Of a stretch of 23,363 nucleotides of DNA, positions 4,101-23,363 are shown one piece after another. Within the stretch, counting starts at the first letter, position 1; each line of letters begins with the position of its first letter. A program made the translations under genes and the position numbers. The notes below the pieces were generated by a model. That model was given only the letters and a program-made list of their open reading frames with translations, was not told the DNA's origin and searched no databases. The DNA is from a virus, in IMG/VR virus record IMGVR_UViG_3300030103_004042, positions 1-23,363 of that record; one strand, given 5' to 3'.

Positions 4101-4170
4101 GGCTGACGCATATTTAGCAAGCTCATCAGATGTCATAAATACAACGGTGGATGCTCAGGAGTATAGCTGA
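1111..4170 (+). CDS. Large tail hub / tip protein
   Basis: The second largest open frame in the structural block (1019 residues), beginning with ATGA overlap on the preceding gene. It lies just before the lysis gene and tail fibre, the usual place of the baseplate hub or tip attachment protein (lambda gpJ type) in long-tailed phages. It has no membrane segment. The region around residues 760-900 contains alternating strands and a segment ending in a measured-value style motif typical of tail hub proteins (position read by eye). The last roughly 90 residues are Ala/Ser/Thr rich and look like a small added beta domain. I cannot align it with a named family by eye, so the hub/tip call rests on length, composition and context. 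Confidence 0.65.
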   Translation: MSVNSDHGRRVFALEVGGLQYRYHSGGGTAGLNTQIISGINYTDVESIIEVGGYSSSLDVAGGVGQYSSTTVTLSVDRQRGGLGDAGIVFGRCGQRSASTKAQLTASLTRSASVIQVDRDLTSLSYPRLLHVGSETVRAISATTTQLNVLAGRAVGNTPRQTHSITLEGSSVPEITTEITTFRGRRAKLYAAHQHPSGSLSSWVEVVNGFIESSPVIERQDAISISLIPLTALVDSQLGDKGVGQSSLLDGYHYYGTDSNMLEYGIRQSSLWGYEVDSTSTITAGTISLIKNSNIALEADFDLSLPKGSADTDFNGQPHPRYPRLKPRMSIEDKYAFPTAIAAGVNGDGQTIYTCTLASLSESFTQAELEDITNLTVERLAELKQHQLGSDELKKWPDVINDTLNSDGPSSSAGLSGGLASWALNGQAQAIVRKTTRSNVETEIFLWSSKLKFILDMQRRGLGNWQNARYWRTANSALMALDDRSRCWYPIDLSSRDEDFVQDIRNTFDGVFRRLQVQPPTFSAQFPLQGVASAYYQLYEDRFLVENSIGLPSTAGSSSFDIVVRFTDRKSNEQRDQVFVATHETTATFSGVDVGVFIHLDPSQSLAENVSFGNWPNHERVIIFRASRINSDRPGVALLKLLESGGGEGLNGTYDVFTLGLNIDDSHIDEQSFLAVDSTSLITVDSFISGDEGDLRELVESILKLLSAAIVMRRDPSTGVSKITLVSIGNDRSANTDLSISAGDWLADEPPYWGVYEDIVTQIEYQYDYDAIEEKYMSNVLFSNQEAITRYGGERSKITLTLPGLSSDEFGRGAGDRYAEFLPISSRIFNLLSNPLRVWRGSIATGQSIYLDVGSYVSVSSPHLKGYGDAYGVTDGVGMVRSIRQELMSEGCELEILVTGLSPVAWNVTARVTAFTADTVTVAEDDFSSLAVDDVSFFKAGDVVDYLPRGDHDSAITNLTIQSIAGNVITFTGAHSIASANGTLESTTYANASATHQADAYLASSSDVINTTVDAQEYS

Positions 4171-4171
4171 T

Positions 4172-4828
4172 ATGCCTACCAAAGCAGAACTAGAAGAACA
4201 GATTGAAGGCCTTAAGCATGATGTCAGGCGTATGGATCGAGCGCTTAATCAGGCTTCTATTGATCTTGAGGCACTGCCACCAAGGATGCTCCATCACCCT
4301 ACACCACATATCGACCCTCGAAGCGCTGAAGCTATAGCCAGAGGTCTATCCGAGTGGGAGCGTAATGTCGTTGACCCTGATGTGAGAATCAACACATACA
4401 TTCGAACTTCTCAGGGTATAGGTTGGGGATGGGAGAAACAGTACACGACCAATGGGCAGTTTGCATGGTGTGGCGCTTTCGCTGCCTTCTGTTGGACTGC
4501 TGTGAAGATCAACATCAGAAAGAAGATCTTTCCCTCATGTTATCGATTATACACGACTTGGTATAATACGAGCCGACGCATTGAATCTGACAGGATGGCT
4601 CCTGGTGATATTGTAGTAGTGTATACATCAAAGCGCAGTAAGCAGGGTGACCACATCACCATCTGTGTTGACGCTCCTGATTGTGATGGCACATTTAAGA
4701 CGGTCGAGGGTAACGCACATGGGACGTTAGGTGATGGCTCTTATGGTGAGGGTGTCATCAGGAGAGAGCGTAACATCGATGAAGTAGCCCATGTCTATAG
4801 ACTCCTCGGCGGTGATTTCGATGAGTGA
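4172..4828 (+). CDS. Endolysin, CHAP/NlpC-P60-like cysteine peptidase
   Basis: Probably cleaves peptide or amide bonds of host peptidoglycan at lysis. Visible features are an N-terminal helical segment (residues 1-35) and a papain-like hydrolase core: FAWCGAF with the likely nucleophile C100, PGDIVV at 143-148, GDHI with the likely catalytic H160, and VEGN with E178/N180 as third residue. This Cys-His-Glu/Asn order is that of CHAP and related amidases. There is no signal peptide. The start at 4172 is preferred over 4151 because AGGAG lies about ten bases before it. It overlaps the next, holin-like gene by eight bases, which supports a lysis role. A tail-associated peptidoglycan hydrolase is the alternative, because a tail hub gene precedes it. 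Confidence 0.75.
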   Translation: MPTKAELEEQIEGLKHDVRRMDRALNQASIDLEALPPRMLHHPTPHIDPRSAEAIARGLSEWERNVVDPDVRINTYIRTSQGIGWGWEKQYTTNGQFAWCGAFAAFCWTAVKINIRKKIFPSCYRLYTTWYNTSRRIESDRMAPGDIVVVYTSKRSKQGDHITICVDAPDCDGTFKTVEGNAHGTLGDGSYGEGVIRRERNIDEVAHVYRLLGGDFDE

Positions 4829-5117
4829 TAAGTCAGCAGAAAAGACTGCCACAGAGAAAGCCGGTGGGCGTAAAGCTATGGCGTTCTACGCTACGCTTTC
4901 ATGCTGTCTATTGCTCGCGCTACTCGATAAAGCTCACACAGAGGTCCTAGGCCTTATTGATACTCTGTTTCTCGTTTACGCTGGTAGTAATGTACTATCA
5001 AAGCGTAAGGGCAAAGAGGATCAACCTCAACCTCAACCTCAACCTCAACCTCAACCTCAACCTCAACCTCAACCTCAACCTCAACCTCAACCAATAGACT
5101 CACTGGAGAAGCCATGA
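4821..5117 (+). CDS. Holin-like small membrane protein with Gln-Pro tail
   Basis: A 98-residue protein when started at the ATG at 4821, which overlaps the endolysin stop; an in-frame ATG at 4791 is the alternative. It has a charged N-terminus, a hydrophobic segment at about residues 20-36, a short turn, and a second moderately hydrophobic segment at about 42-60. A basic patch (KRKGK) and twelve consecutive Gln-Pro pairs follow near the C-terminus. Small size, two possible membrane helices, a charged tail and coupling to the endolysin fit a holin or a holin-like pore partner. The Gln-Pro tail is unusual for holins and would form an extended rod. Function is inferred from topology and context. 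Confidence 0.55.
   Translation: MSDKSAEKTATEKAGGRKAMAFYATLSCCLLLALLDKAHTEVLGLIDTLFLVYAGSNVLSKRKGKEDQPQPQPQPQPQPQPQPQPQPQPQPIDSLEKP
5022..5093 (+). repeat. Hexanucleotide tandem repeat (CAACCT)
   Basis: Eleven perfect copies of CAACCT, then one CAACCA, lie in frame within the holin-like gene and encode twelve Gln-Pro pairs. Because the unit is six bases, copy-number change by slippage would alter only the length of the tail and not the frame. Confidence 0.95.
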
Positions 5118-5510: not shown

Positions 5511-8144
5511 ATGAGTATTTCAGCTAAACCTTGGGACAGTGCCGGCGGTGGTGCTAGCTCAGACACACTTAATGATGTCACAGGTAGAGGAGCGACGACG
5601 GGTAATAGTATTCAAGTTGGTGGTTTAAATATCGCAGGTAACTATGCCATGCCATCAGCTGATGGTTCAGTGAATCAAGTATTGCAGACAGATGGTAGTG
5701 GTTCACTCTCATTTACTAATATAAGCGTCACTGGTGGTTTAACGTACAAAGGCAAATACTATTTAAGCTCACCTGCTGACCTAAGCAACGCGGTTCAAGG
5801 TGACTTCTATATCATTCAAGGGGACGGAACGCTTTATGGTAAAGCATGGATTACCGGTGACCACCTTGTAGTTAATGATGATATGGGTGGATCAGTATCT
5901 AACGGTAAGATTGATAAGATCGACAATACTGACCTAGTCACCAGCGTTAATGCATTAACTGGTCCTGTAGTCCTAAACGGTACTAACGTTGACGGCGATT
6001 ATACTCCGAGCAACTACAGCACTAACGCCGGTAGTGACAAAATAGAGAAGCATCTTGAAGGTATTGATAATAAATTTGGTACTCTCGGCACAGCGTCGAC
6101 CTCAGCAAGCACAGACTTTCAGCCTATTGATGCAGGCTTAACGTCAATTAGTGGGTTAACGACAGCAGCTGATAAGATGATTTATACATCAGGTTCAGAC
6201 ACGTATGCTGTGACTGACTTGACGTCAGCCGGTCGAGCTCTACTCGATGATGCTAATGCTTCAGCTCAGAGAACAACGCTAGGCCTAGTCATTGGCACTG
6301 ATGTCTCAGCCATTGCATCACCTGCATTTACTGGCTCACCCACTGCACCAACGCAGAGCGCCGGTGATGACTCAACCAAGATCGCAACGACTGCATATGT
6401 AGATGCTGCAGTAACAGCTAGTGGCGGTGCTACTGATCTTAATGGTCTTAGTGATGTAACGATCACTAGTGCAGCGTCTGGCAACCTGCTTCAGCATAAT
6501 GGCTCAGGTCAGTTTATTAATGTAGCTAAGAGCACAATTAGTGTAGGCACGTTTAACGATGACAATACGTATCAGCCTAAAGATGCAGGTCTTACATCTA
6601 TAGCAGGTCTTACAACAGCAGCTGATAAGATGATCTATACATCAGGATCAGATACGTATGCAGTGACTGACTTGACATCAGCCGGTCGAGCTCTACTCGA
6701 TGACGCTAATGCAACAGCTCAGAGATCTACACTAGGCCTAGGCTCTGCAGCTCTCTCAGAGAGCACAGATTTTCAGCCTATTGATGCAGGTCTCACGTCA
6801 ATCAGCGGGTTAACTACAGCAGCTGATAAGATGATCTATACATCAGGTTCAGACACTTACGCTGTAACAGACTTAACGTCAGCCGGTCGAGCTCTACTCG
6901 ATGATGCTAATGCGACAGCTCAGAGAGCAACATTAGGTCTAGTCATTGGCACTGATGTATCTGCTATTGCATCACCTGCATTCACTGGCTCACCCACTGC
7001 CCCTACTCAGAGCGCCGGTGATGACTCAACCAAAATTGCAACTACTGCTTATGTAGAGGCTGCAGTGGTCGCCGGTGGTGGTCTGTCTTCAGTAGTGCAA
7101 GACACATCACCTGAGCTGGGGGGCAATCTGGATGTATTATCGCGCTCGATTGTCTCTAGCTCAAATAGAGCTATCACGCTCACTCCAGATGGATCAGGTC
7201 TAGTTACGATCTCAGGAAATGCTACGAGTGGATCAGGGCAAATAAAGCTAAACTGTGAGCAGAACTCTCATGGGATTAAACTCAAAAGTCCACCACACAG
7301 CGCTAATGCTGACTATACTCTTGTATTCCCTGATGATCTTGGCACATCAGGTAAAGTACTCACTACGAATGGTGGTGGTGGTGGTGGCTCAACTATAGGA
7401 ACACTGACATGGGAGACTGTAAGCACAACAGATACAACAAAGCTAGCTATACTCAATAACCTCAGCGACCTAGACAACGCCGGCACAGCTCGAACTAATT
7501 TAGGGTTAGTCATTGGTACTAATGTTCAAGCTTATGATCTAGGTCTTACATCTATCGCAAGTCTAACGACGGCAGCAGATAAGATGCTGTATACAGATGG
7601 ATCAGACAGCTATGCTGTGACGGGCTTAACATCAGCCGGTCGAGCTTTACTCGATGATGCAGATGCTTCAGCTCAACGAACAACGTTAGGGCTAGTCATT
7701 GGGACAGACGTGGCCCCTATTGCAGCACCTGCATTCACAGGCAATGCTACTGCTGTAACTCAAAGTCAGTCTGATAACTCAACTAAACTCGCTACTACTG
7801 CTTATGTTGATACAGCTGTGGCCGGCGGTGGTGGAAGTAAGCCCACGATCACAACGTTGGGCAGTCAAGGAGCAAATTACACGATCACGACATCATCTGG
7901 TATTGAAGAAGTCTTTTTGATCACACCTACATCTAATATTGATATTGTGCTCGAAGCTGCTGCTACATGTGGAGCGGGGTACAAATATCAGATTAAGAAT
8001 CTTGCTTCATCATATAGCCTCACGCTCAAAGGGCCTAGTAGTGAGACGATTGATGGCGTACTGCCCGCGACCGGCATCAGTATTGACGCCCAATTTGAGG
8101 CTGTAACAGTGATCACTGATGGCTCAAACTGGTTTATTATCTAA
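5511..8144 (+). CDS. Tail fibre protein with tandem repeats
   Basis: An 877-residue fibre, probably trimeric, that would extend from the tail and take part in host recognition. It starts at ATG after TGAGGAGTAAATC, which contains a clear AGGAG. The middle contains four copies of a module beginning D-x-GLTSI at residues 207, 358, 425 and 676. Three of them continue into a segment with SPAFTG or APAFTG and ending ATTAYV, which matches the known phage tail fibre repeat family (Phage_fiber_2 type). A run of Gly near 7371-7388 forms a flexible linker. The final residues (GSNWFII) are a common ending of fibre and collar proteins. It is followed with one-base overlap by three small proteins that probably form or decorate its tip. 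Confidence 0.88.
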   Translation: MSISAKPWDSAGGGASSDTLNDVTGRGATTGNSIQVGGLNIAGNYAMPSADGSVNQVLQTDGSGSLSFTNISVTGGLTYKGKYYLSSPADLSNAVQGDFYIIQGDGTLYGKAWITGDHLVVNDDMGGSVSNGKIDKIDNTDLVTSVNALTGPVVLNGTNVDGDYTPSNYSTNAGSDKIEKHLEGIDNKFGTLGTASTSASTDFQPIDAGLTSISGLTTAADKMIYTSGSDTYAVTDLTSAGRALLDDANASAQRTTLGLVIGTDVSAIASPAFTGSPTAPTQSAGDDSTKIATTAYVDAAVTASGGATDLNGLSDVTITSAASGNLLQHNGSGQFINVAKSTISVGTFNDDNTYQPKDAGLTSIAGLTTAADKMIYTSGSDTYAVTDLTSAGRALLDDANATAQRSTLGLGSAALSESTDFQPIDAGLTSISGLTTAADKMIYTSGSDTYAVTDLTSAGRALLDDANATAQRATLGLVIGTDVSAIASPAFTGSPTAPTQSAGDDSTKIATTAYVEAAVVAGGGLSSVVQDTSPELGGNLDVLSRSIVSSSNRAITLTPDGSGLVTISGNATSGSGQIKLNCEQNSHGIKLKSPPHSANADYTLVFPDDLGTSGKVLTTNGGGGGGSTIGTLTWETVSTTDTTKLAILNNLSDLDNAGTARTNLGLVIGTNVQAYDLGLTSIASLTTAADKMLYTDGSDSYAVTGLTSAGRALLDDADASAQRTTLGLVIGTDVAPIAAPAFTGNATAVTQSQSDNSTKLATTAYVDTAVAGGGGSKPTITTLGSQGANYTITTSSGIEEVFLITPTSNIDIVLEAAATCGAGYKYQIKNLASSYSLTLKGPSSETIDGVLPATGISIDAQFEAVTVITDGSNWFII
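6129..7820 (+). repeat. Tail fibre module repeats (four copies)
   Basis: Four imperfect direct repeats start at 6129, 6582, 6783 and 7536. Each encodes a GLTS..LTTAADKM segment and then a GRALLDDA segment. Copies 1, 3 and 4 extend through the ATTAYV segment; copy 2 is cut short and runs into copy 3. Conservation at the DNA level is high in the stretch encoding SAGRALLDDA. Such repeats can recombine to lengthen or shorten the fibre. Confidence 0.9.
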
Positions 8145-8581
8145 TGACTTTTAATCATAAATTAGTAGAAAAAGTCAGCTTTGATTTATACCTCGCTGGC
8201 CTCAGTCTTTCAACGTATGCCGTTGATGCTGTCTATCAATTGTCTAATGCAGAGGGTTCAATCACTCTGTCTGAGTCATCTGGTGTCATAACGTTGCCTG
8301 CTGGTCGATATATGCTTGAAGCATCCCCCCACATTGATGCTGCATCTACATCTGACGTTGTTAAGTGGAGCTGGCAACAAGACAACAGTGGAACCTTTGA
8401 AACTATCGGACTAGAGGGACAGCTTCAAGTTATCGGTGACACGATCGGAGAGAAAGATCTGGCGCTTGCTGTTGTTGATTCGGACTCTGCTGTTGACGTG
8501 CGTCTAATTGTCACCGCAATGACCTCATCAGGCACACCGACCGATGACGGTGGATGTGTTGTAATCTGGAGAGAATCATGA
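8144..8581 (+). CDS. Fibre-tip / receptor-binding protein candidate 1
   Basis: A 145-residue protein starting on the last base of the tail fibre stop (TAATG). The sequence is beta-rich, with an ITLPAGRYMLEA segment in the centre and a C-terminal VVIWRES. The same LPAGxYxL segment and an IWR ending recur in the gene at 8979, and an IWR ending also occurs in the gene at 8578. The LPAG-R/K-Y-x-L motif followed by strands resembles trimeric C1q/TNF-like jelly-roll domains found at phage fibre tips. A role in receptor binding is inferred from this pattern and from its place directly after the fibre. Confidence 0.6.
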   Translation: MTFNHKLVEKVSFDLYLAGLSLSTYAVDAVYQLSNAEGSITLSESSGVITLPAGRYMLEASPHIDAASTSDVVKWSWQQDNSGTFETIGLEGQLQVIGDTIGEKDLALAVVDSDSAVDVRLIVTAMTSSGTPTDDGGCVVIWRES

Positions 8582-8982
8582 GCTATAATCCTGCATCCCC
8601 CAAAAAAGCACTTGGTTTTATTCAAGCTACAGCTGTTTCATCAGCGACAGTTAACACTGTGCCTTTTGATGTACCTAACGACATGGAAACAACTGAGAGT
8701 GGTGAGAAAACTGAGCTCTTTGCAGGGTCCATTGTGCTCATGACTTACTCAAGGTCTAACGATGGGTCAACTAGTAGGTCGTCAGCATATCATGTCGTGT
8801 CTACTGAGACAGATCTAAGATATAGAGGTAGAATACCTGGTGAGATTGCTAATTATTTTCAAAGCTCTGAGTATGCTTTTGATTTTACAGATAATATTAA
8901 ACCGTATCAGGTAAACACCATTGGCTCAGGCAATATTGATTTTACAAATTATTCACACTGTAGAATCTGGAGGTTAGTGTGA
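8578..8982 (+). CDS. Fibre-tip / receptor-binding protein candidate 2
   Basis: A 134-residue protein starting at the ATG overlapping the previous stop by four bases, with GGAG about eight bases upstream. An in-frame ATG at 8554 would need a longer overlap and lacks a better site. The sequence is beta-rich. It ends in CRIWRLV, matching the VIWRES and MIWRFA endings of its two neighbours, but lacks a clear LPAG motif. It may be a diverged jelly-roll relative. The role in host recognition is inferred. Confidence 0.55.
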   Translation: MSYNPASPKKALGFIQATAVSSATVNTVPFDVPNDMETTESGEKTELFAGSIVLMTYSRSNDGSTSRSSAYHVVSTETDLRYRGRIPGEIANYFQSSEYAFDFTDNIKPYQVNTIGSGNIDFTNYSHCRIWRLV

Positions 8983-9479
8983 CATATAGACCTACAATCC
9001 GGACTGGTAAATTAAGCGTTGCAATACTGAATAATACTCATGATCAATCTACGACAACGACTACATATATTGATTATCAAATCACAACAGGTTACGACTC
9101 TGTCGTTGATCAATTCTCAAATACACTAACGATTGATGCAACTAACAATAGAGTGACATTGCCAGCCGGCAAATATTATTTAGATGCTCGCCTCATGATA
9201 AAACGTGGTGCAGCTGGTACTTGGGGCGCTGAGTATATTTGGTATAGTTGGGATGGTAGCTCAAGAACTGATCTAGGCTATGTAGGTCGTGAAGTAGGCG
9301 CCGTAGCCATTGGCGACCCACACAAAAGTGAGCACGCTAAAGCTTATATTGAGAGTGACGGATCGGCTATTATAGGCCTACAGTATAAGACAATTAATGG
9401 TGTACTTATTGAAGTCAGTGATACTCAATATGATGATTATTGTGGACAGTCACGATTGATGATTTGGAGGTTTGCATGA
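8979..9479 (+). CDS. Fibre-tip / receptor-binding protein candidate 3
   Basis: A 166-residue protein beginning with GTG that overlaps the previous stop (GTGA). GGAGG lies six bases before the start, which decides it. It contains VTLPAGKYYLDA, clearly related to the LPAGRYMLEA segment of the protein starting at 8144, followed by alternating strands and a C-terminal LMIWRFA. The arrangement fits a small C1q/TNF-like jelly-roll. Tandem paralogues after a fibre suggest alternative or hetero-oligomeric tips. Confidence 0.6.
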   Translation: MTYRPTIRTGKLSVAILNNTHDQSTTTTTYIDYQITTGYDSVVDQFSNTLTIDATNNRVTLPAGKYYLDARLMIKRGAAGTWGAEYIWYSWDGSSRTDLGYVGREVGAVAIGDPHKSEHAKAYIESDGSAIIGLQYKTINGVLIEVSDTQYDDYCGQSRLMIWRFA

Positions 9480-9793
9480 TCAATGTCAACATACCAAAAG
9501 ACACACTTAAATATGTGGGCGCTGTCTCTGTCATATTCGGCGCGTGGCTAGGTGCTTATGTATGGGGTATTCACCTAGGAGCTGCACAGTCTGAGCAGAG
9601 CCACAAGGAGGAACTCGCTGAATGTGTGGTCAAGGTAGATCAGGTGCATACTCAAATGATTGACGCTCAGCTCAAGCTCGTAGAGTGTGAATCTATTAAG
9701 GCGGGTAAATGCGCTCTAAACTGTGAGGCCATAGCTCAGGAGCGTGTTGATGCTGTACTACAAGATCTACAAGAGGTGATGTGTGCAGATTAG
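9476..9793 (+). CDS. Membrane-anchored coiled-coil protein, i-spanin-like
   Basis: A 105-residue protein starting at ATGA overlapping the previous stop, with GGAGG seven bases upstream. A short N-terminal stretch is followed by one hydrophobic segment at about residues 11-30. A charged, heptad-like helical region with five Cys residues follows. One N-terminal anchor and a periplasmic coiled coil is the layout of inner-membrane spanins (Rz type), which fuse the membranes at lysis of Gram-negative hosts. No separate small outer-membrane lipoprotein with a lipobox was seen nested or downstream. The call is therefore structural likeness, not identification. Confidence 0.5.
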   Translation: MINVNIPKDTLKYVGAVSVIFGAWLGAYVWGIHLGAAQSEQSHKEELAECVVKVDQVHTQMIDAQLKLVECESIKAGKCALNCEAIAQERVDAVLQDLQEVMCAD

Positions 9794-15379: not shown

Positions 15380-17344
15380 ATGGAAATCAAAGAGATGACT
15401 GATAGCAATATCATTAATAGTTTAAGAAGGGCTGCTCAGCTTGCAGGGTCCTGGCAGTTCGCCAGAGAACTATATATCAACTCGGTTGAGGCTGACGCTA
15501 CATTTTCAGAGACTTCAAGAGTTAATGATAAATTCGCATTTTTTGATAATGGTTGTGGAATAGCTCCAAGCGATTTAGACCAATACATTAATGCAAGAAA
15601 CTCCTCATCTAAGCAGACCGGTGGACTTCATCAAAACTACGGTATTGGTCTTAAAGACACTGCTCTATGGTACAATCAATATGGGGTGGTTATTGTCAGC
15701 AAAACAGAAGAATGCCCACATGGTGGTATGATATGGCTTTCTATAGATTGGTGCTCAGGCAAAGCAGGAGCTAAGCATTTAATTTCTGATGAAATGATTA
15801 AATCTGGCTACAGTGGTCCAGGTGAACCAGTTATTGATTTTAAACACCACTCATCATTTACGATTGATGGCATTGACTTCACTAAGCTCTTTAACAAAAA
15901 GAGACGAATTAAGAAGTCGGGTACTGCAATAATCTTGATGGGTAATAGCAAAACAGAAGATACATTCTCAAAACTATCAAGCGCTAAACTTGTGCAGTTT
16001 TTATCAAGTCGGCTTTTTAGTCTTCCAATACCCATCAGCATGAATAGGCCAACTGGCAAAGTACAGAAGACAGATAACTTATCAGACTTCTCGAGCATAT
16101 TTAATGCAAGAATTATAGATACAATGTCTTATCAAGGCTTTGAAATAACTACTTCTATAATTTTAGAGTCTGACTTTTATGATAAGAAGTATATCAAACC
16201 ATACTCAGAGAGAAACAACCTATGTAAGTGTAAGACTTTTATTGATTTCATTCTCTACCAGAACGAGATGTATGGATATCGCTTAAGCAAAGGATCTGCG
16301 GAAAGTCGTAAACGCGCTGAAAAATGGGGCATTTATTACTCAAGTGTCGCTGATAGAGTAAGGATCTGCATCAGACCACCAATGGCTGATGGTCTCGGCT
16401 CTAAAGGTGTTTACCCAAACAGTGAAAGGACTACTTTATTTTGGGGCACTGGCACAGCTGAATCGGATCCAACACCAATATCACTAGGCGAGATCAGAAA
16501 GTATTACATTGAGAATATGCCTACTAAACTTGAGGAGCTCCTTGAGGCTGCAGCTGAAGCTCAAGCACCAGCCAAAAGTGATAGGAATCAAGAGTGGATG
16601 CAAAGCTGGGTAAAGTATCAAGGTGTAAGCAGGGACGCATTAAGGCCTGGCGCTTTAGAATCTTACAGAAGTTCAAGCAATGGCAATGAAGTGCCTGGCG
16701 TATTAGGACCATTGTTTGAGCCTCCAAAGAAAGACTCAAAGCCCAAACAAAATAAGCCCACTTCAAAACCTAAGAGCAAGAAAACTTCAAGGGGAAGCGC
16801 GGATAAACCAAAGACGATTCTTGATGGTAATGGCAAAATCAAGGCTAAGCGTAAAACTCAAACCGACTTTGACCAAGTGGTCTTTATTGATGAGTTGTCT
16901 GAAGATCAAATAGAAAATATCGAATCATACTTTAGGCCAGACACTGATCATAAATATTGGATTGTTTACCCTATGGGTCATGGTTGCATTTATATCGATG
17001 AAGGATGCTCAACAATTAGAAAAGGTGCTCACGTTGCTTGTGACATTATCAATGAGCGTGTCAATGATAAAAGGAAAACAAAATGGTCAAGACGTGTAAA
17101 TTATCAAGAGGTGCTGACTCATATCATCAAGCCTTATTTAAAACAGGTTTTGCCGGTTCAGATTCGAGACTTAGCAACTGATCAAGATATGATTAAAAAC
17201 AATCAGTCTCCGAGAAACCCAGACCAAATACAGCAGATCCTTGGTGGTGGTATCTGGGGATCTTATGCAGTGGATAATCATGATTTTTATTTTCAATGGT
17301 TAAAGAGCTTAAAGACAACAAAAGAAACTAATGAGGCATCATGA
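15380..17344 (+). CDS. GHKL (Bergerat-fold) ATPase, phage type
   Basis: A 654-residue protein with an N-terminal HSP90/MutL-like ATP-binding domain. The N-box is ARELYINSVEAD with E30 and N34; the G1 box is DNGCG (56-60); the G2 box is NYGIGLK (86-92). Such domains act as ATP-driven clamps in DNA gyrase, MutL, HSP90, MORC and some defence proteins. Residues about 440-490 form a Lys/Pro/Ser-rich linker, and the last 150 residues form a second domain I do not recognise. It sits after SSB, which suggests DNA repair, DNA remodelling or counter-defence. Its codon style looks plainer and more AT-rich than that of neighbours, hinting at separate acquisition. No MutL dimerisation or nuclease motif was seen. 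Confidence 0.75.
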   Translation: MEIKEMTDSNIINSLRRAAQLAGSWQFARELYINSVEADATFSETSRVNDKFAFFDNGCGIAPSDLDQYINARNSSSKQTGGLHQNYGIGLKDTALWYNQYGVVIVSKTEECPHGGMIWLSIDWCSGKAGAKHLISDEMIKSGYSGPGEPVIDFKHHSSFTIDGIDFTKLFNKKRRIKKSGTAIILMGNSKTEDTFSKLSSAKLVQFLSSRLFSLPIPISMNRPTGKVQKTDNLSDFSSIFNARIIDTMSYQGFEITTSIILESDFYDKKYIKPYSERNNLCKCKTFIDFILYQNEMYGYRLSKGSAESRKRAEKWGIYYSSVADRVRICIRPPMADGLGSKGVYPNSERTTLFWGTGTAESDPTPISLGEIRKYYIENMPTKLEELLEAAAEAQAPAKSDRNQEWMQSWVKYQGVSRDALRPGALESYRSSSNGNEVPGVLGPLFEPPKKDSKPKQNKPTSKPKSKKTSRGSADKPKTILDGNGKIKAKRKTQTDFDQVVFIDELSEDQIENIESYFRPDTDHKYWIVYPMGHGCIYIDEGCSTIRKGAHVACDIINERVNDKRKTKWSRRVNYQEVLTHIIKPYLKQVLPVQIRDLATDQDMIKNNQSPRNPDQIQQILGGGIWGSYAVDNHDFYFQWLKSLKTTKETNEAS

Positions 17345-17943: not shown

Positions 17944-18186
17944 ATGGACGAAACGAACACACCCATACACGCGCGAGAAGATAGCGCAGCCTATGTCATT
18001 AAAGTGCTAACTCAGCTCAAAGCTATGCTTACCCTTGGTGAGTCAGATCCTCTATGCAGACAAGCCTCAGCGCTATATGATAATGTAGAGCGTACACTTC
18101 AGTCAGCATATCAAGAGTTAGAGGATGCAAGTGACAAGTTACGACGCAATCAGAATGAGGATAGCCAGGAGCCAAGAGACTCCTGA
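17944..18186 (+). CDS. Small helical hypothetical protein
   Basis: An 80-residue protein starting at ATG three bases after the previous stop, with AAGG about eight bases upstream. It is predominantly helical, with a charged C-terminal third. No motif is recognised. Its last 62 bases overlap the start of the repeat-protein gene in another frame. Confidence 0.5.
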   Translation: MDETNTPIHAREDSAAYVIKVLTQLKAMLTLGESDPLCRQASALYDNVERTLQSAYQELEDASDKLRRNQNEDSQEPRDS

Positions 18187-18454
18187 GCAGAGAGAGACAC
18201 GACTGTCTAAACAGAGGGAGTATGCTCGAGCTCGGAGAGAGACTGAGACTTCAGAGCAGAGAGAGTCTCGACTAGAGAAGCAACGTGCTTCTAATAGAAA
18301 GCATAGGCACAGCCAGACGCCAGAGCAGAGAGAGGCTCGACTAGCTAAACAGCGTGTCTATAATCAAAAAGCTAGAGACAATGAGACACCTGAGAAAAGA
18401 CAGGCACGTCTTGAATATCAGCGCTCTGCTAATCGAAAGTATAGACATGGGTAA
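18125..18454 (+). CDS. Basic protein of four 23-residue repeats, STPR-like
   Basis: A 109-residue protein. After a 17-residue lead it consists entirely of four exact 23-residue units (18-40, 41-63, 64-86, 87-109) with consensus ETPEQREARLxKQR, then a variable aromatic/basic segment. No residue is left over. The period, the ExPEQR-x-x-RL-x-x-R core and the basic, helical character match the score-and-three-amino-acid peptide repeat (STPR) of silkworm FMBP-1, a DNA-binding domain that also has four units (from memory). It probably binds DNA. The start at 18125 has GAGG only just before it; an ATG at 18155 is possible and would keep all repeats. It overlaps the small terminase start by eight bases. 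Confidence 0.65.
   Translation: MQVTSYDAIRMRIARSQETPEQRETRLSKQREYARARRETETSEQRESRLEKQRASNRKHRHSQTPEQREARLAKQRVYNQKARDNETPEKRQARLEYQRSANRKYRHG
18176..18451 (+). repeat. Four 69-bp tandem repeats in the STPR-like gene
   Basis: Units are 18176-18244, 18245-18313, 18314-18382 and 18383-18451. They code for the 23-residue repeats. The CAGAGAG stretch encoding EQRE is conserved in the first three and altered in the fourth. Divergence within units suggests ancient duplication under selection for the protein. Confidence 0.85.
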
Positions 18455-18902: not shown

Positions 18903-19113
18903 GCCAAGTAGAGAGCGCACCTATTACAGAGTTGAAGGGACCTATCATAAAGTGTGTGAGGAGGACCGGTCGACAGATTGGCTCATCATCTACTATGACT
19001 CTCTCGATGTGAATCTAGGCACAACCATAAGCGTAACTCAGGTTGATGTGAATGGACTACAGAGAACGCTAGATTATGAGGCCACATCAGAGGGCCTAGC
19101 TTTTGTCTCTTAG
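18859..19113 (+). CDS. Small hypothetical protein between terminase genes
   Basis: An 84-residue protein starting at one of two adjacent ATG codons (18859, 18862), with AGGA about ten bases upstream. The first half is basic with alternating strands (RVKLKRQWTVEP, RTYYRVEG); the second is beta-rich. It has no membrane helix or Cys-based metal site. I do not recognise it. Its ends overlap the small terminase by 44 bases and the large terminase by 11, so it is translated with both and may be a packaging accessory. Confidence 0.55.
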   Translation: MMKVRVKLKRQWTVEPSRERTYYRVEGTYHKVCEEDRSTDWLIIYYDSLDVNLGTTISVTQVDVNGLQRTLDYEATSEGLAFVS

Positions 19114-20464
19114 CCTCAACCCCCTCCAACAGGATATCATTGGAGCGATAAGAGGAGAGGAGCGCATTATCTCGGCTCGATGTGGTTGGGGATCTGGCAA
19201 GACATCAGCGCTGGTGTTTAGCCTGCTCTTCATCAGCAAGTGGAGAGCAGGTCGCAGCTCCTTGCTTGTCACAGATACTAATCCACGTTACAACAGTGTC
19301 CTCCTTCCTGAGATGGAGAAGTGGCTTTCACCACTTGGTTGGACTTACAACCATACCTTGCGTCAATGGGCAGATCCGCAGACGGGCTCAACGGTGTGGT
19401 GTAGGTCTTACTATAGACCAGGGACACGTGACGCCACCCATAATCCCCTTGAGGGTCTAAATGTGACTAGTGGTGTCTGTCTTATCGATGAGTGCCAGAC
19501 GCTATCATCAGAGGTGGCGCACAAAGCTTTAGGTCGATTAAGAGCAGGCCCATCACCCATCATGATCTTAGTGGGTCTACCTGTTAGCGGTGCATGGTGG
19601 GTAGAGATGGCAGAGACAGCAGGGTGTCAGCCTATGCTGTACACGTCTTATGTCAACGAAGACAATCTTAGCGCTGAGTGGTTTGAGGCAACTAAACTTT
19701 TACCCAAAGCTGAGCGTGACGCTATGGTCCTCAATAAGCCTCGACCACCAACAGGTCTAATCTACTCAGAGTTTAATGAGGAGGTTCATGTGATCGATGG
19801 GTGGGAGTACAAGCCCACCATGTCAGGACGTATCGCCATCGACTGGGGATTCAGGAAGCCATCAGTGCTGATTATTGCCCATGATGATGAGCTAGGCGCT
19901 GATGTGGTATGTGGTGAGCTTAACCCTGCTGAGGTCACTGTCGATGAGTTAGCCAGACTTATACTCATGACAGCATGGCCTAGGTCACTGAAGAGTGAAG
20001 CACCAGGGGAGCGAATCTGGCTAGACTATGGAGTGGCTGACAAAGCAGGTAGAGCTAGGAATGATCAGACGGGTAGGTCAGCGTTTAAGGCTATGAGAGC
20101 ATCACCACCTTTGGGGATAGGTATGCCTCTGAGATCAAACACAGACCCCATCAGGACTGATGTGCTTAATGGTATTCAGCGTCTTAAGAGGTGCTTTGCT
20201 AGAGGTCAGTATCTAGTGACACGTGAGGTATGGGATCAGGGTGAGCGCGCCACAGGTAACAGTCTGCGTAAAGCTATCTACTCTTATGGGTGGGACAATA
20301 AAGAGCAACCTAAGAAGGATGGGCGTGAGGACCCACTTGACGCACTGCGCTATGACGCCATAACATGGAATTGGTCTGATACGTTGGTTGATCAGAGGTC
20401 ATATACAGCTAGGACGCCAATAAGCCGAAAGGTGAAAGTAGGCGGTAAAGGGGGAAGGTTTTGA
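19103..20464 (+). CDS. terL: Terminase large subunit
   Basis: A 453-residue packaging motor with ATPase and nuclease domains. Walker A is GWGSGKT (28-34), Walker B is VCLIDEC with D129/E130. The nuclease half starts with AIDWGFRKPS, giving the first acidic residue D247, and ends with a DPLDALRYD segment supplying the last acidic residues near 413-418. The start must be the TTG at 19103: the frame is closed by a TAG at 19097-19099 and no ATG occurs until residue 72. AGAGGG lies eight bases upstream of the TTG. It overlaps thyX by four bases (TTGA). Confidence 0.95.
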   Translation: MSLSLNPLQQDIIGAIRGEERIISARCGWGSGKTSALVFSLLFISKWRAGRSSLLVTDTNPRYNSVLLPEMEKWLSPLGWTYNHTLRQWADPQTGSTVWCRSYYRPGTRDATHNPLEGLNVTSGVCLIDECQTLSSEVAHKALGRLRAGPSPIMILVGLPVSGAWWVEMAETAGCQPMLYTSYVNEDNLSAEWFEATKLLPKAERDAMVLNKPRPPTGLIYSEFNEEVHVIDGWEYKPTMSGRIAIDWGFRKPSVLIIAHDDELGADVVCGELNPAEVTVDELARLILMTAWPRSLKSEAPGERIWLDYGVADKAGRARNDQTGRSAFKAMRASPPLGIGMPLRSNTDPIRTDVLNGIQRLKRCFARGQYLVTREVWDQGERATGNSLRKAIYSYGWDNKEQPKKDGREDPLDALRYDAITWNWSDTLVDQRSYTARTPISRKVKVGGKGGRF

Positions 20465-21141
20465 ATATCTATGGCGGTCAAGGTTATGCCTACATGCTCT
20501 CATCGATGGGAGAGGATCACACACCAGCTTTAGCAGCGCGTGTTAGTTTTGCTGACTACGAGAATGGATTGATGAATGATCGTAATCTCAGGTTGATTAA
20601 GTATCTAGCTAAGCATCAGCACACATCACCCTTTGAGCACAACACAGCCACCTTTGTCATTGACTGTCCCATCTATGTAGCTAGGCAGATCATGAGACAT
20701 AGGACATTCTCATATAATGAGGTAAGCCGGCGCTATACATCAGAGGCGCTTGACTTTCATCTACCTGATGAGTTGAGAGCACAGGCTAAAAGTAATCTAC
20801 AATGCTCGACCTCTGAAATCGTCAACCGGTCTGATGAGTTTGTAGAGCTCATCGAGCGTCATCAGGAGTTGAGCTTAGAGATGTATAATGAGCTTATCGA
20901 GTCAGGAGTTGCTAGAGAGCAAGCACGCGCCGTTCTACCTCAGTCCTTGAATACTACCTTTTGGATGACAGGTAATCTCTTGAACTGGTCAAGGTTCCTG
21001 AAGCTCAGACTAGACTCACACTCACAGCCAGAGACTAGAGAAGTAGCAGAGGCCATCATGATTCAGCTGGGTAAGCTGTGGCCTATTAGTCTCTCAGCTC
21101 TGCTAGGTGATCATGTTAAAACACATCAAGCTGAGAATTGA
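20461..21141 (+). CDS. thyX: Flavin-dependent thymidylate synthase (ThyX)
   Basis: A 226-residue enzyme that methylates dUMP to dTMP with methylene-tetrahydrofolate, FAD and NADPH. The family signature RHRxxSxxxxSxRY is present as RHRTFSYNEVSRRY at residues 79-92. SPFEHNTATF just before it and the C-terminal RFLKLRLDSHSQPE stretch are also conserved. Length is close to usual. It begins with TTG overlapping the large terminase stop, with GGGGGAAGG immediately upstream. Its substrate is the product of the deaminase encoded next. An unrelated host-type ThyA is not present. Confidence 0.96.
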   Translation: MNIYGGQGYAYMLSSMGEDHTPALAARVSFADYENGLMNDRNLRLIKYLAKHQHTSPFEHNTATFVIDCPIYVARQIMRHRTFSYNEVSRRYTSEALDFHLPDELRAQAKSNLQCSTSEIVNRSDEFVELIERHQELSLEMYNELIESGVAREQARAVLPQSLNTTFWMTGNLLNWSRFLKLRLDSHSQPETREVAEAIMIQLGKLWPISLSALLGDHVKTHQAEN

Positions 21142-21574
21142 TCAAGCTAAGCTCTTAGCCTCATGCTCACCTTGTCCACGTGGTCAAGTCGGTGCAGTCA
21201 TATATGATCCTGAGTCATGGGCTGTGATCTCAGATGGTTATAATGGACCTCCTCGAGGAGGGTCTAAGTTATGTCACTCAGATCATGCTTGCTCACGTAT
21301 TGACCTCAACATCATCAGTGGTCAGCGTGTCGAGGTTGGCTGTCATCATGCTGAAGCTAATGCCATAGTCAACGCTTCAAGACTTGGAGCATCTACCCTA
21401 AATGCTCATCTAGCTGTCACACGTTCACCTTGTCTTAACTGTGCTAAGTTAATACACCATGCAGGTATAAAAGCAGTATACTCACCAGACGATGGTGATC
21501 AGCCTGGCATCGATTATCTTATTAAGCATAATGTGGAGGTGGTGAGATGGTCGACCTCAAAGAGAGACAACTAG
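21113..21574 (+). CDS. dCMP deaminase
   Basis: A 153-residue zinc deaminase that converts dCMP to dUMP for ThyX. From the ATG at 21113 (AGGTGA upstream), the catalytic HAE motif is H79-A80-E81 and the second zinc motif is PC107xxC110. The N-terminal SCSPCPRGQVGAVI and the GYNGPPRGG segments are typical of dCMP/dCTP-type deaminases of the ComEB family. The start lies inside the last 29 bases of thyX, in a different frame; the GTG at 21107 is a less likely start. It overlaps the cyclase gene by 28 bases, so all four genes of this block are coupled. Confidence 0.92.
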   Translation: MLKHIKLRIDQAKLLASCSPCPRGQVGAVIYDPESWAVISDGYNGPPRGGSKLCHSDHACSRIDLNIISGQRVEVGCHHAEANAIVNASRLGASTLNAHLAVTRSPCLNCAKLIHHAGIKAVYSPDDGDQPGIDYLIKHNVEVVRWSTSKRDN

Positions 21575-22350
21575 CAATTGTACTACTTGACCTCATCGGC
21601 TCTACTGCTTTTGTCGAGAGAGTAGGCGCTAAAGATGCAGCCATCTGGCTTCAGTATCATGACCGGCTTGCAAGGTCTTTGCTGTATAAGTTCGACGGTA
21701 GAGAGATAGATAGATCTGATGGCTTCATGCTCAGCTTTGATAAACCCATCGACGCCGTTAACTTTGCACTGATCTATCAACAGACTATCCCTGCTAAGAC
21801 TCACCTCAATACACGAATAGGGATTCATTGGGGTACAGTCATCGAGGTTATCCAAGATGATACGTGGACAGCAGTGGGAGCTAAGCGAGTTGAGCTTGAA
21901 GGTATCAGTAAGAACATAGCAGCTAGGACGATGAGTTTATGTGGGGCTGGTCAAGTGCTCCTGACATCTGAAGCGCTAGAGTCTGTCAAGGGCGCTACCA
22001 ATGCATTCACACCAAAGGGTACTCGATATGTGATGATAGGCCTTTATAAGTTCAAAGGTGTAGGAGCTGCACAGACTCTCTATGCAGTAGGCAGTGATAT
22101 TAGAGCGCTTCAACCTCCTAAGGGTACTGATAAAGCAAAACGTCTAGGTGGTCCTAAGAAGGTCAAGAGTAGAGCGCGTGACCGTAAAGTCTTAGAGTGG
22201 ATCATGTGGGTATTACCTCGATGGGCTCTAATCAATCTCATCTACATCATCTGTGAGTTGTGGCCTTGGCTCAGCGCTCAGGGATATGTGAAGTGGTTAC
22301 AGGTCACCGGCAACTTTATAGTGAGGATGTTCTATGGCCCAGGATATTAA
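21547..22350 (+). CDS. Class III nucleotidyl cyclase with C-terminal membrane segment
   Basis: A 267-residue protein. Residues 8-182 form a class III cyclase homology domain: LDLIGST with metal-binding D15, GREIDRSDGFMLSF with second metal Asp D58, TRIGIHWG (89-96), KNIAAR with transition-state N123/R127, and a GQVLLTSEA segment. It would make a cyclic nucleotide from a nucleoside triphosphate. The residue that selects adenine (Lys in adenylate cyclases) is not Lys here, since the segment reads EIDRSDG and appears one residue short, so the substrate is open. Residues 218-236 and roughly 240-262 are hydrophobic (WIMWVLPRWALINLIYII) and follow a basic linker, suggesting membrane attachment. GGAGG precedes the ATG. 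It overlaps the next gene by 17 bases. Confidence 0.85.
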   Translation: MVDLKERQLAIVLLDLIGSTAFVERVGAKDAAIWLQYHDRLARSLLYKFDGREIDRSDGFMLSFDKPIDAVNFALIYQQTIPAKTHLNTRIGIHWGTVIEVIQDDTWTAVGAKRVELEGISKNIAARTMSLCGAGQVLLTSEALESVKGATNAFTPKGTRYVMIGLYKFKGVGAAQTLYAVGSDIRALQPPKGTDKAKRLGGPKKVKSRARDRKVLEWIMWVLPRWALINLIYIICELWPWLSAQGYVKWLQVTGNFIVRMFYGPGY

Positions 22351-22825
22351 ACAGCGTAAGACTGAGAAAGAGCTTAGCGCCCAAGAGAAAACTAAACGTG
22401 GTTGGTGGTTTAGTGTATTTTTTATGCTCTTGGTCGTTGGGCTCATCCTATTCTTAACTTATGTAGAGATAGTCGAAAAGAACAGAGATGTCTTAGTGGG
22501 TATACTCGGGATGATCACTGGCTCGATCTCATCGATGATGGCTATAGCCTCAGGTCGAGATCCGTCTGAAGTTGAAGACCTCAAGGACAAGCTCGCATCA
22601 GCCAACGCTGACAGAGAAGCATTGATAGGCCGGTTGAGAGATGCACAGATTCAGATGCAACTTAGCAGAGAGCAGATATCAGAACTACAGACCGCAGTCA
22701 TAGAGAAGCTGTCCATCTTTTCAGGTGAAAGACCGATTAAGACAAAAGATCCTGACAAGGTAATACTACCCCCTACGGTTGAGGAGTGGTTGCCTGAAAT
22801 TGATTCTGTGGACAGAGGTGACTAA
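22334..22825 (+). CDS. Two-helix membrane / coiled-coil protein coupled to the cyclase
   Basis: A 163-residue protein overlapping the cyclase gene by 17 bases. A charged N-terminus is followed by a strong membrane segment (WFSVFFMLLVVGLILFLTYV, about residues 25-44) and a second weaker hydrophobic segment (about 53-72, with ILGMITGSISSMMAIA). A long coiled coil with QMQLSREQISELQTAVIEK and a Pro-rich acidic tail complete it. No cyclic-nucleotide-binding domain is recognisable. Small phage membrane proteins of this type near portal genes are often holin-like or of unknown role. Coupling to the cyclase makes it a candidate partner, but no domain proves this. Confidence 0.6.
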   Translation: MAQDIKQRKTEKELSAQEKTKRGWWFSVFFMLLVVGLILFLTYVEIVEKNRDVLVGILGMITGSISSMMAIASGRDPSEVEDLKDKLASANADREALIGRLRDAQIQMQLSREQISELQTAVIEKLSIFSGERPIKTKDPDKVILPPTVEEWLPEIDSVDRGD

Positions 22826-22878: not shown

Positions 22879-23363
22879 ATGATAGACGAACAGAGGCCAC
22901 CCAAACACCTTAAAGCACTGCACCCACGTTTAGGGGTGAAAGGGATTTCAGGTACTCAACTCTCTGGTGGTAACATCACCGGCAAAGAGAACAACCCTCA
23001 GCTCACTGGCCTCAATTGGGTCACTGAAGCTGAAGAGATGATGAGGACTGATCCCATAGTCAGACGATCTTGGCACATGCTAAGACAGACTCTCCTCTCT
23101 GCCTCCTGGCGTTGGGAGCCTGGCGTTGAGAATGATGAGGTAGCTGATGAGCTCGCTAGATATGCCAATGAGTGTTGGGGCCTAGATGGATTCTCAGGCC
23201 AGATGTCTATCTCATGGGAAGAGCAACTTGCTTACCTCCTAGAGTTTATACCCTTGGGATATCGTTACGCTGAAGAGGTCTATAAAGTCGGGCCAGACTC
23301 AGACGGTAGAATCAGAGTGTGGCTGTCACACTATGCAGATCGTGAGCCATCAGCGCACTCACA
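22879..23363 (+). CDS. Portal protein, N-terminal part (cut by window end)
   Basis: The frame from the ATG at 22879 is open to the window end, giving about 161 residues. GGGG lies eight bases upstream. The segment EAEEMMRTDPIVRRSWHMLR followed by SWRWEPG and by LLEFIPLGYRYAEEVYK matches the opening of DUF935-like (Mu gp29-type) portal proteins, where an N-terminal loop region precedes the dodecameric wing and stem. The portal is the DNA entry vertex of the head and docks the terminase encoded to the left. Four unrelated genes separate the two here. Confidence 0.7.
   Translation, partial: MIDEQRPPKHLKALHPRLGVKGISGTQLSGGNITGKENNPQLTGLNWVTEAEEMMRTDPIVRRSWHMLRQTLLSASWRWEPGVENDEVADELARYANECWGLDGFSGQMSISWEEQLAYLLEFIPLGYRYAEEVYKVGPDSDGRIRVWLSHYADREPSAHS

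What the first reader, a model, noticed from the sequence alone, without database searches (positions are those of the whole stretch)
21547..22825. Phage-encoded class III cyclase coupled to a two-helix membrane protein
A complete class III cyclase domain (metal Asp D15 and D58, transition-state N123/R127) with its own hydrophobic C-terminal segment is followed by an overlapping gene for a membrane/coiled-coil protein. Known cyclase-plus-membrane-effector pairs in bacteria include the Pycsar defence systems, where a class III cyclase makes cCMP or cUMP. A phage carrying such a pair could run its own signal, feed a host pathway, or exclude rival phages. Against a Pycsar-type effector: no cyclic-nucleotide-binding domain is visible in the partner. 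The Lys that marks adenylate cyclases is absent, so the nucleotide is unknown.
Basis: partly seen in the sequence, partly recalled or inferred. Interest (0 to 1): 0.85.

Follow-up and report, generated by a model that had tools for sequence, protein, structure and literature searches.

The report
Phage cyclase with dedicated membrane partner
Several unrelated groups of uncultivated viruses of bacteria carry the same two-gene module, an enzyme predicted to make a cyclic-nucleotide signal plus an almost unchanging membrane protein, which suggests that these viruses run their own signalling switch at the membrane of the infected cell.

Summary
ORF 21547-22350 is a class III nucleotidyl cyclase; its metal residues D15 and D58 and transition-state R127 are invariant in 71 relatives, and N123 is kept in 70. 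It ends in a membrane anchor. ORF 22334-22825, overlapping it by 17 nt, encodes two TM helices plus a cytoplasmic coil. The pair also occurs in large AT-rich phages with a different terminase, in a 76-kb contig and in a 6-kb fragment, where it is the most similar or nearly the only shared gene content. Both genes are under strong purifying selection (dN/dS 0.08 and 0.05). No cellular or plasmid relative of the partner was found. It is not Pycsar by the tests run: no PycTM, no cNMP-binding domain, no PADLOC match; the cyclase is nearest the N-terminal domain of TIGR04510. Best reading: a transferable phage signalling module in which a membrane-tethered cyclase controls a two-TM effector. The nucleotide and the purpose are inferred, not shown.

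The parts
21547..22350 (+). class III nucleotidyl cyclase gene, 267 aa
   Evidence: Pfam PF00211 over cut-off; TIGR04510 N-domain 3e-44; Foldseek to Rv1900c/Ma1120 about 1e-13
21589..21591 (+). metal-binding Asp D15
   Evidence: invariant 71/71
21709..21720 (+). D55-R56-S57-D58: D58 second metal Asp; D55 aligns with the base-selecting Lys position
   Evidence: GREIDRSDGF invariant in 71/71; alignment to Rv1900c
21913..21927 (+). N123 and R127, transition-state residues
   Evidence: 70/71 and 71/71; Ala at N123 in two divergent phages, L093 and L321
22093..22197 (+). conserved basic linker between cyclase domain and membrane anchor (residues 183-217)
   Evidence: mean column conservation 0.81
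22189..22335 (+). C-terminal hydrophobic membrane anchor, variable in sequence (residues 215-263)
   Evidence: helices 215-244 and 249-263; conservation 0.49 for residues 218-267
22334..22350 (+). 17-nt overlap of the two genes
   Evidence: coordinates; overlaps of 4-23 nt in 101 of 103 loci
22334..22825 (+). partner gene: two-TM protein with cytoplasmic coil, 163 aa, orphan family
   Evidence: 60 of 60 members have 2 TM; no significant family match
22409..22465 (+). partner TM1 (residues 26-44)
   Evidence: hydropathy and conservation; helix 3-47
22490..22552 (+). partner TM2 (residues 53-73), rich in invariant small/polar residues
   Evidence: conservation 0.96; helix 51-72
22562..22720 (+). 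partner cytoplasmic helix/coiled coil (residues 77-129)
   Evidence: helix 77-129 in the model; residues 74-110 conserved at 0.95
19103..20464 (+). terminase large subunit, upstream context
   Evidence: PHROG terminase 1e-5; its relatives carry the pair wherever sequence reaches far enough
20461..21574 (+). ThyX and dCMP deaminase, variable neighbours
   Evidence: Pfam Thy1 1e-50 and dCMP_cyt_deam 8e-18; absent or moved in many relatives
22879..23361 (+). portal protein (runs off the window), downstream context
   Evidence: Pfam Portal_Mu 7e-6 and PHROG portal

Best explanation
A phage-borne, transferable two-gene membrane signalling module. The cyclase, tethered to the inner membrane by its C-terminal hydrophobic segment, turns an NTP into a cyclic nucleotide (catalytic residues shown; activity inferred; nucleotide unknown, probably not a classical adenylate or guanylate cyclase because the K/D and E/C base-selecting residues are missing). 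The two-TM partner is its dedicated membrane effector: TM2 and the adjoining cytoplasmic helix form the working part, probably an oligomer, whose state is changed by the nucleotide or by contact with the cyclase (inferred). The outcome is a change in the infected cell's membrane or its signalling that serves the phage, most likely holding the cell against competitors or defences (inferred).
For: Intact catalytic residues and cyclase fold. Pair co-occurrence without real exception: 263 loci, 119 distinct sequences, same order and strand. Gene overlap conserved. Presence in phages with a different terminase, sharing few or no other genes with the 36-kb lineage. dN/dS 0.08 for the cyclase and 0.05 for the partner, like terminase and portal. 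The partner stays conserved while the cyclase drifts: in L318 and L319 the best-hit identity is 85% for the partner but about 47% for the cyclase, so the partner is constrained by something other than one particular cyclase, as expected of an effector. TM2 and adjoining coil 0.96 and 0.95 conserved, cyclase anchor only 0.49. No relative of the partner in 84,980 species genomes, the plasmids or the cultured phages.
Against: No cyclic-nucleotide-binding domain in the partner, nor any PF00027 protein in 13 phage contigs searched. The partner model is only moderate (pLDDT 69, pTM 0.26) and has no structural match. Two divergent cyclases have Ala at N123. A module that looks universal in the 36-kb lineage and is as constrained as structural genes could be essential for growth rather than a weapon against rivals. 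No activity, expression or interaction data.
Confidence: 0.45

Rival explanations
1. The partner is the membrane regulator or scaffold of the cyclase (a transmembrane input split off in trans), and the cyclic nucleotide acts on a host pathway such as a CRP-type regulator.
For: No nucleotide-binding domain in the partner; the cyclase has its own anchor and a conserved basic linker; tight overlap suggests coupled translation.
Against: The partner hardly changes while the cyclase diverges to 40-54% identity to the window's in several large phages, not what a cyclase-specific scaffold predicts; genes lie 1.3-1.6 kb apart in some large phages.
Confidence: 0.27
2. A phage-run Pycsar-like exclusion system in the strict sense: the cyclase senses a second infection and a cyclic pyrimidine opens the partner as a pore.
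For: Same overall plan, class III cyclase plus TM protein; D55 at the Lys position recalls D94 of the uridylate cyclase BcPycC (PMC11224242); ThyX or dCMP deaminase lie near the pair in three backgrounds.
Against: PycTM and CNBD absent with controls ringing; PADLOC no match; nearest cellular cyclases found are TIGR04510-type, not PycC.
Confidence: 0.13
3. The partner is a holin-like lysis protein and the cyclase a lysis timer.
For: Two-TM plan; weak match of one member to a holin PHROG (0.025); all members match phrog_9990, a 72-position family of unknown function, weakly (best 1e-4).
Against: The phage has an endolysin (4151-4828) followed by a small ORF with a hydrophobic stretch (4791-5117) and an Rz-like candidate at 9440-9793, far from the pair; the pair is not beside lysis genes in the loci inspected.
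Confidence: 0.08
4. The two genes are neighbours without joint function, for instance a structural operon remnant.
For: In the 36-kb lineage they sit between terminase and portal.
Against: Neighbouring ThyX and dCMP deaminase come and go while the pair stays, and the pair recurs in unrelated phages.
Confidence: 0.04

Closest known systems
Pycsar (PycC pyrimidine cyclase + PycTM)
   Same: Two-gene module of class III cyclase and transmembrane protein
   Different: Carried by phages; partner lacks PycTM and CNBD; cyclase not matched by PADLOC models or by sequence to PDB PycC entries
TIGR04510 putative peptide modification system cyclase (Burkholderiales relatives L230-L237)
   Same: Cyclase domain with GREID[RK][ST]DG-type motif; 34-41% identity to bacterial copies
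   Different: The family model is 814 positions long; the phage form stops after the cyclase domain, has a membrane anchor, has Asn at N123 where the eight bacterial copies read have another residue, and forms its own clade
Mycobacterial cyclases Rv1900c (1ybt) and Ma1120 (4wp8)
   Same: Closest solved fold
   Different: About 25% identity; no membrane partner known to me
Pelagiphage adenylate cyclase beside curli genes (PMC9599517)
   Same: Shows that phages can carry a class III cyclase
   Different: Linked to curli secretion, FecR and histidine kinase; no two-TM partner described in the passages read
SLATT two-TM effectors
   Same: Two TM plus following helix; weak Pfam SLATT_fungal matches in 19/20 members (best 3.6e-5)
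   Different: Window protein below cut-off; AbrB matches as often; hhalign to one bacterial SLATT_1 protein finds nothing (prob 0.7%)

Membership tests
class III nucleotidyl cyclase | two metal Asp and transition-state Arg in the cyclase fold | tested here: met
   D15, D58, R127 invariant in 71/71; fold match
class III nucleotidyl cyclase | transition-state Asn | tested here: met
   N123 in 70/71; Ala in L093 and L321
adenylate cyclase | base-selecting Lys/Asp pair | tested here: not met
   D55 at the Lys position in the sequence alignment, E116 at the Asp position by motif register
guanylate cyclase | base-selecting Glu/Cys pair | tested here: not met
   D55/E116
class III nucleotidyl cyclase | production of a cyclic nucleotide | not testable with these tools
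   needs biochemistry
Pycsar | PycTM effector domain (PF18967) | tested here: not met
   none in 6 phage contigs; 2 controls ring
Pycsar | cyclic-nucleotide-binding domain in the effector | tested here: not met
   no PF00027 in 13 phage contigs, 10 controls ring
Pycsar | cyclase of the PycC families | tested here: inconclusive
   no PADLOC match at E<=10 but no positive control run; profile does not find PycC entries in PDB
Pycsar | cCMP or cUMP product and abortive infection | not testable with these tools
   needs biochemistry and infection assays
TIGR04510 mod_pep_cyc | score over the family cut-off (400 bits, full-length protein) | tested here: not met
   151.7 bits, N-terminal domain only
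SLATT effector | match over cut-off to a SLATT model | tested here: not met
   18.7 of 26.5 bits for the window protein; hhalign to one SLATT_1 member negative
phage holin | holin family match and position in lysis cassette | tested here: not met
   PHROG holin E 0.14 for the window protein; endolysin lies elsewhere

The most novel reading that the evidence does not exclude
A phage-only cyclic-nucleotide signalling system: a cyclase with unusual base specificity driving a new class of membrane effector without a known nucleotide-binding domain, exchanged as a unit between unrelated phages that attack similar hosts.
Probability: 0.4. Interest if true: 0.88.

Novelty: new variant of a known kind. 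Interest (0 to 1): 0.73.

Why it matters
Bacteria use cyclase-plus-membrane-effector pairs against phages. Here phages carry a pair of the same general plan, apparently as a standard gene set in one lineage and shared with at least two other backgrounds, and the membrane partner has no detected cellular relative. If active, it would be phage-run second-messenger signalling, with a testable product and an orphan membrane effector.

Tried and rejected
PADLOC search of both proteins: nothing. The only INPHARED cyclase hit, MT838110, reads as an actinobacterial-type scaffold (cyclase-ATPase-TPR protein), not a phage. SLATT relationship: weak Pfam hits, not supported by hhalign against one member. 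phrog_9990 in genomes: only marginal matches. Structure search with the partner model: no match. Literature: no paper found on phage-encoded nucleotide cyclase pairs, only the pelagiphage cyclase. Host assignment: neither terminase nor helicase searches nor tRNAs point to a host; the DUF481 protein beside the pair in a large phage suggests a Gram-negative host. L310, a terminase locus without the pair, ends 2.7 kb after terminase, just past ThyX. Mirror-tree correlation is not specific: cyclase-partner 0.78 is no higher than with terminase.

Full report
Observation. The window is a whole IMG/VR virus record (23,363 bases). The first matches Pfam Guanylate_cyc just over its cut-off and, much more strongly, the N-terminal domain of NCBIfam TIGR04510 (3e-44). 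Its model (pLDDT 83) superposes on the mycobacterial class III cyclases Rv1900c and Ma1120 (E about 1e-13), which are also its nearest solved sequences. Across 71 distinct relatives D15, D58 and R127 never change and N123 changes once. The base-selecting Lys is replaced by an invariant Asp (D55), read from the alignment to Rv1900c; E116 stands at the usual Asp position. The pair is therefore neither K/D nor E/C. The C-terminus carries a hydrophobic segment that is present in all 71 members but variable in sequence.

Partner. The second ORF has two TM segments and a long cytoplasmic helix. It matches no family significantly. TM2 and the first part of the coil are the most conserved stretches measured in either protein (0.96 and 0.95). 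The model is only moderate (pLDDT 69) and has no structural match.

Are the two genes coupled? In the first set of loci all 103 that hold the partner (and whose partner start could be read) have the cyclase directly upstream, overlapping by 4-23 nt in 101. After all scans 263 loci (119 distinct by sequence) hold both, on one strand in one order. The loci with only one gene that were listed (9 cyclase-only and 2 partner-only, and the cyclase-only terminase loci) have that gene at or very near a contig end. Starting from the terminase of this 36-kb lineage, 50 of 80 loci have both genes, 8 have the cyclase at the contig end and 22 end before it could appear. The pair thus looks like a core feature of the lineage. 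ThyX and dCMP deaminase next to it come and go.

Other backgrounds. The partner scan from L205 found further contigs of 12.9 to 102.5 kb, each with a cyclase upstream. These AT-rich phages (GC 0.28-0.33) share many genes with each other but with G001 only the pair and at most ThyX, a tail-fibre fragment and one small ORF. Three of them encode a Terminase_6N terminase that G001 lacks, and none of the contigs has the 36-kb lineage's terminase. A 76-kb contig (GC 0.41) and a 6-kb fragment (GC 0.51) also carry the pair, sharing otherwise only ThyX and/or dCMP deaminase with G001. The phage cyclases form one clade (100/100) against eight bacterial relatives, and the large-phage partners cluster (98/93), so the pair appears to have a common origin and to have moved between phage backgrounds, in a direction not determined here.

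Selection. Median dN/dS is 0.08 for the cyclase and 0.05 for the partner, against 0.06 for terminase and 0.05 for portal.

Mechanism. Shown: fold, catalytic residues, anchor, two-TM partner, pairing, purifying selection. Inferred: catalysis, inner-membrane topology, effector role, purpose. I favour the partner as effector because it stays conserved while the cyclase drifts (best-hit identities in L318 and L319: partner 85%, cyclase about 47%) and because the genes can lie 1.3-1.6 kb apart, which a diffusible signal tolerates. A regulator or scaffold role is the closest rival. A lysis role is unlikely because the phage has an endolysin and a small ORF with a hydrophobic stretch together elsewhere.

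Known systems. Pycsar has the same plan, but PycTM and the cyclic-nucleotide-binding domain are absent from the phages while the controls ring. PADLOC gave nothing, without a positive control. BcPycC also has an Asp (D94) among its base-recognition residues (PMC11224242), a lead only. The nearest cellular cyclases found are TIGR04510-type proteins of Burkholderiales at 34-41% identity, whose substrate I do not know. Phage cyclases as such are known from pelagiphages (PMC9599517). No relative of the partner was found in GTDB species genomes, plasmids or INPHARED phages; those scans use short patterns or tblastn, so very distant relatives may be missed.

Noticed in passing
window 18125-18454 (+): 109-aa ORF matching Pfam STPRs (score and three amino acid peptide repeats, 3e-13), a repeat known to me from eukaryotic DNA-binding proteins; it overlaps its neighbours and has tblastn matches in 61 fetched loci.
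   Followed up: partly
window 15380-17344 (+): 654-aa protein with a weak GHKL/HSP90-like ATPase match (HATPase_c_3, 6.5e-5, just under cut-off), no PHROG function, divergent relatives in 25 fetched loci.
   Followed up: partly
L345:10548-11312 and L093:8464-9180: Directly after the partner gene in large phages lies a DUF481 protein gene (2.5e-11 in L345; the L093 copy is called related by reading only); G002 and G003 have relatives. DUF481 proteins are outer-membrane barrels to my knowledge: possible receptor masking, and a hint of a Gram-negative host.
   Followed up: partly
L213:6732-8706 (-): Adenylosuccinate synthetase-like and IMPDH/GMP reductase-like genes in the 76-kb contig that carries the pair; possibly a purine-modified genome.
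   Followed up: no
L205:4936-6285: Three small fibre-like ORFs sit between cyclase and partner in a large phage, similar in style to window ORFs 8144-9479; no Pfam match for those tested.
   Followed up: no
L230, L233, L234, L235, L237: Rubrivivax MAG-214 carries at least five TIGR04510-like cyclase genes on different contigs.
   Followed up: no
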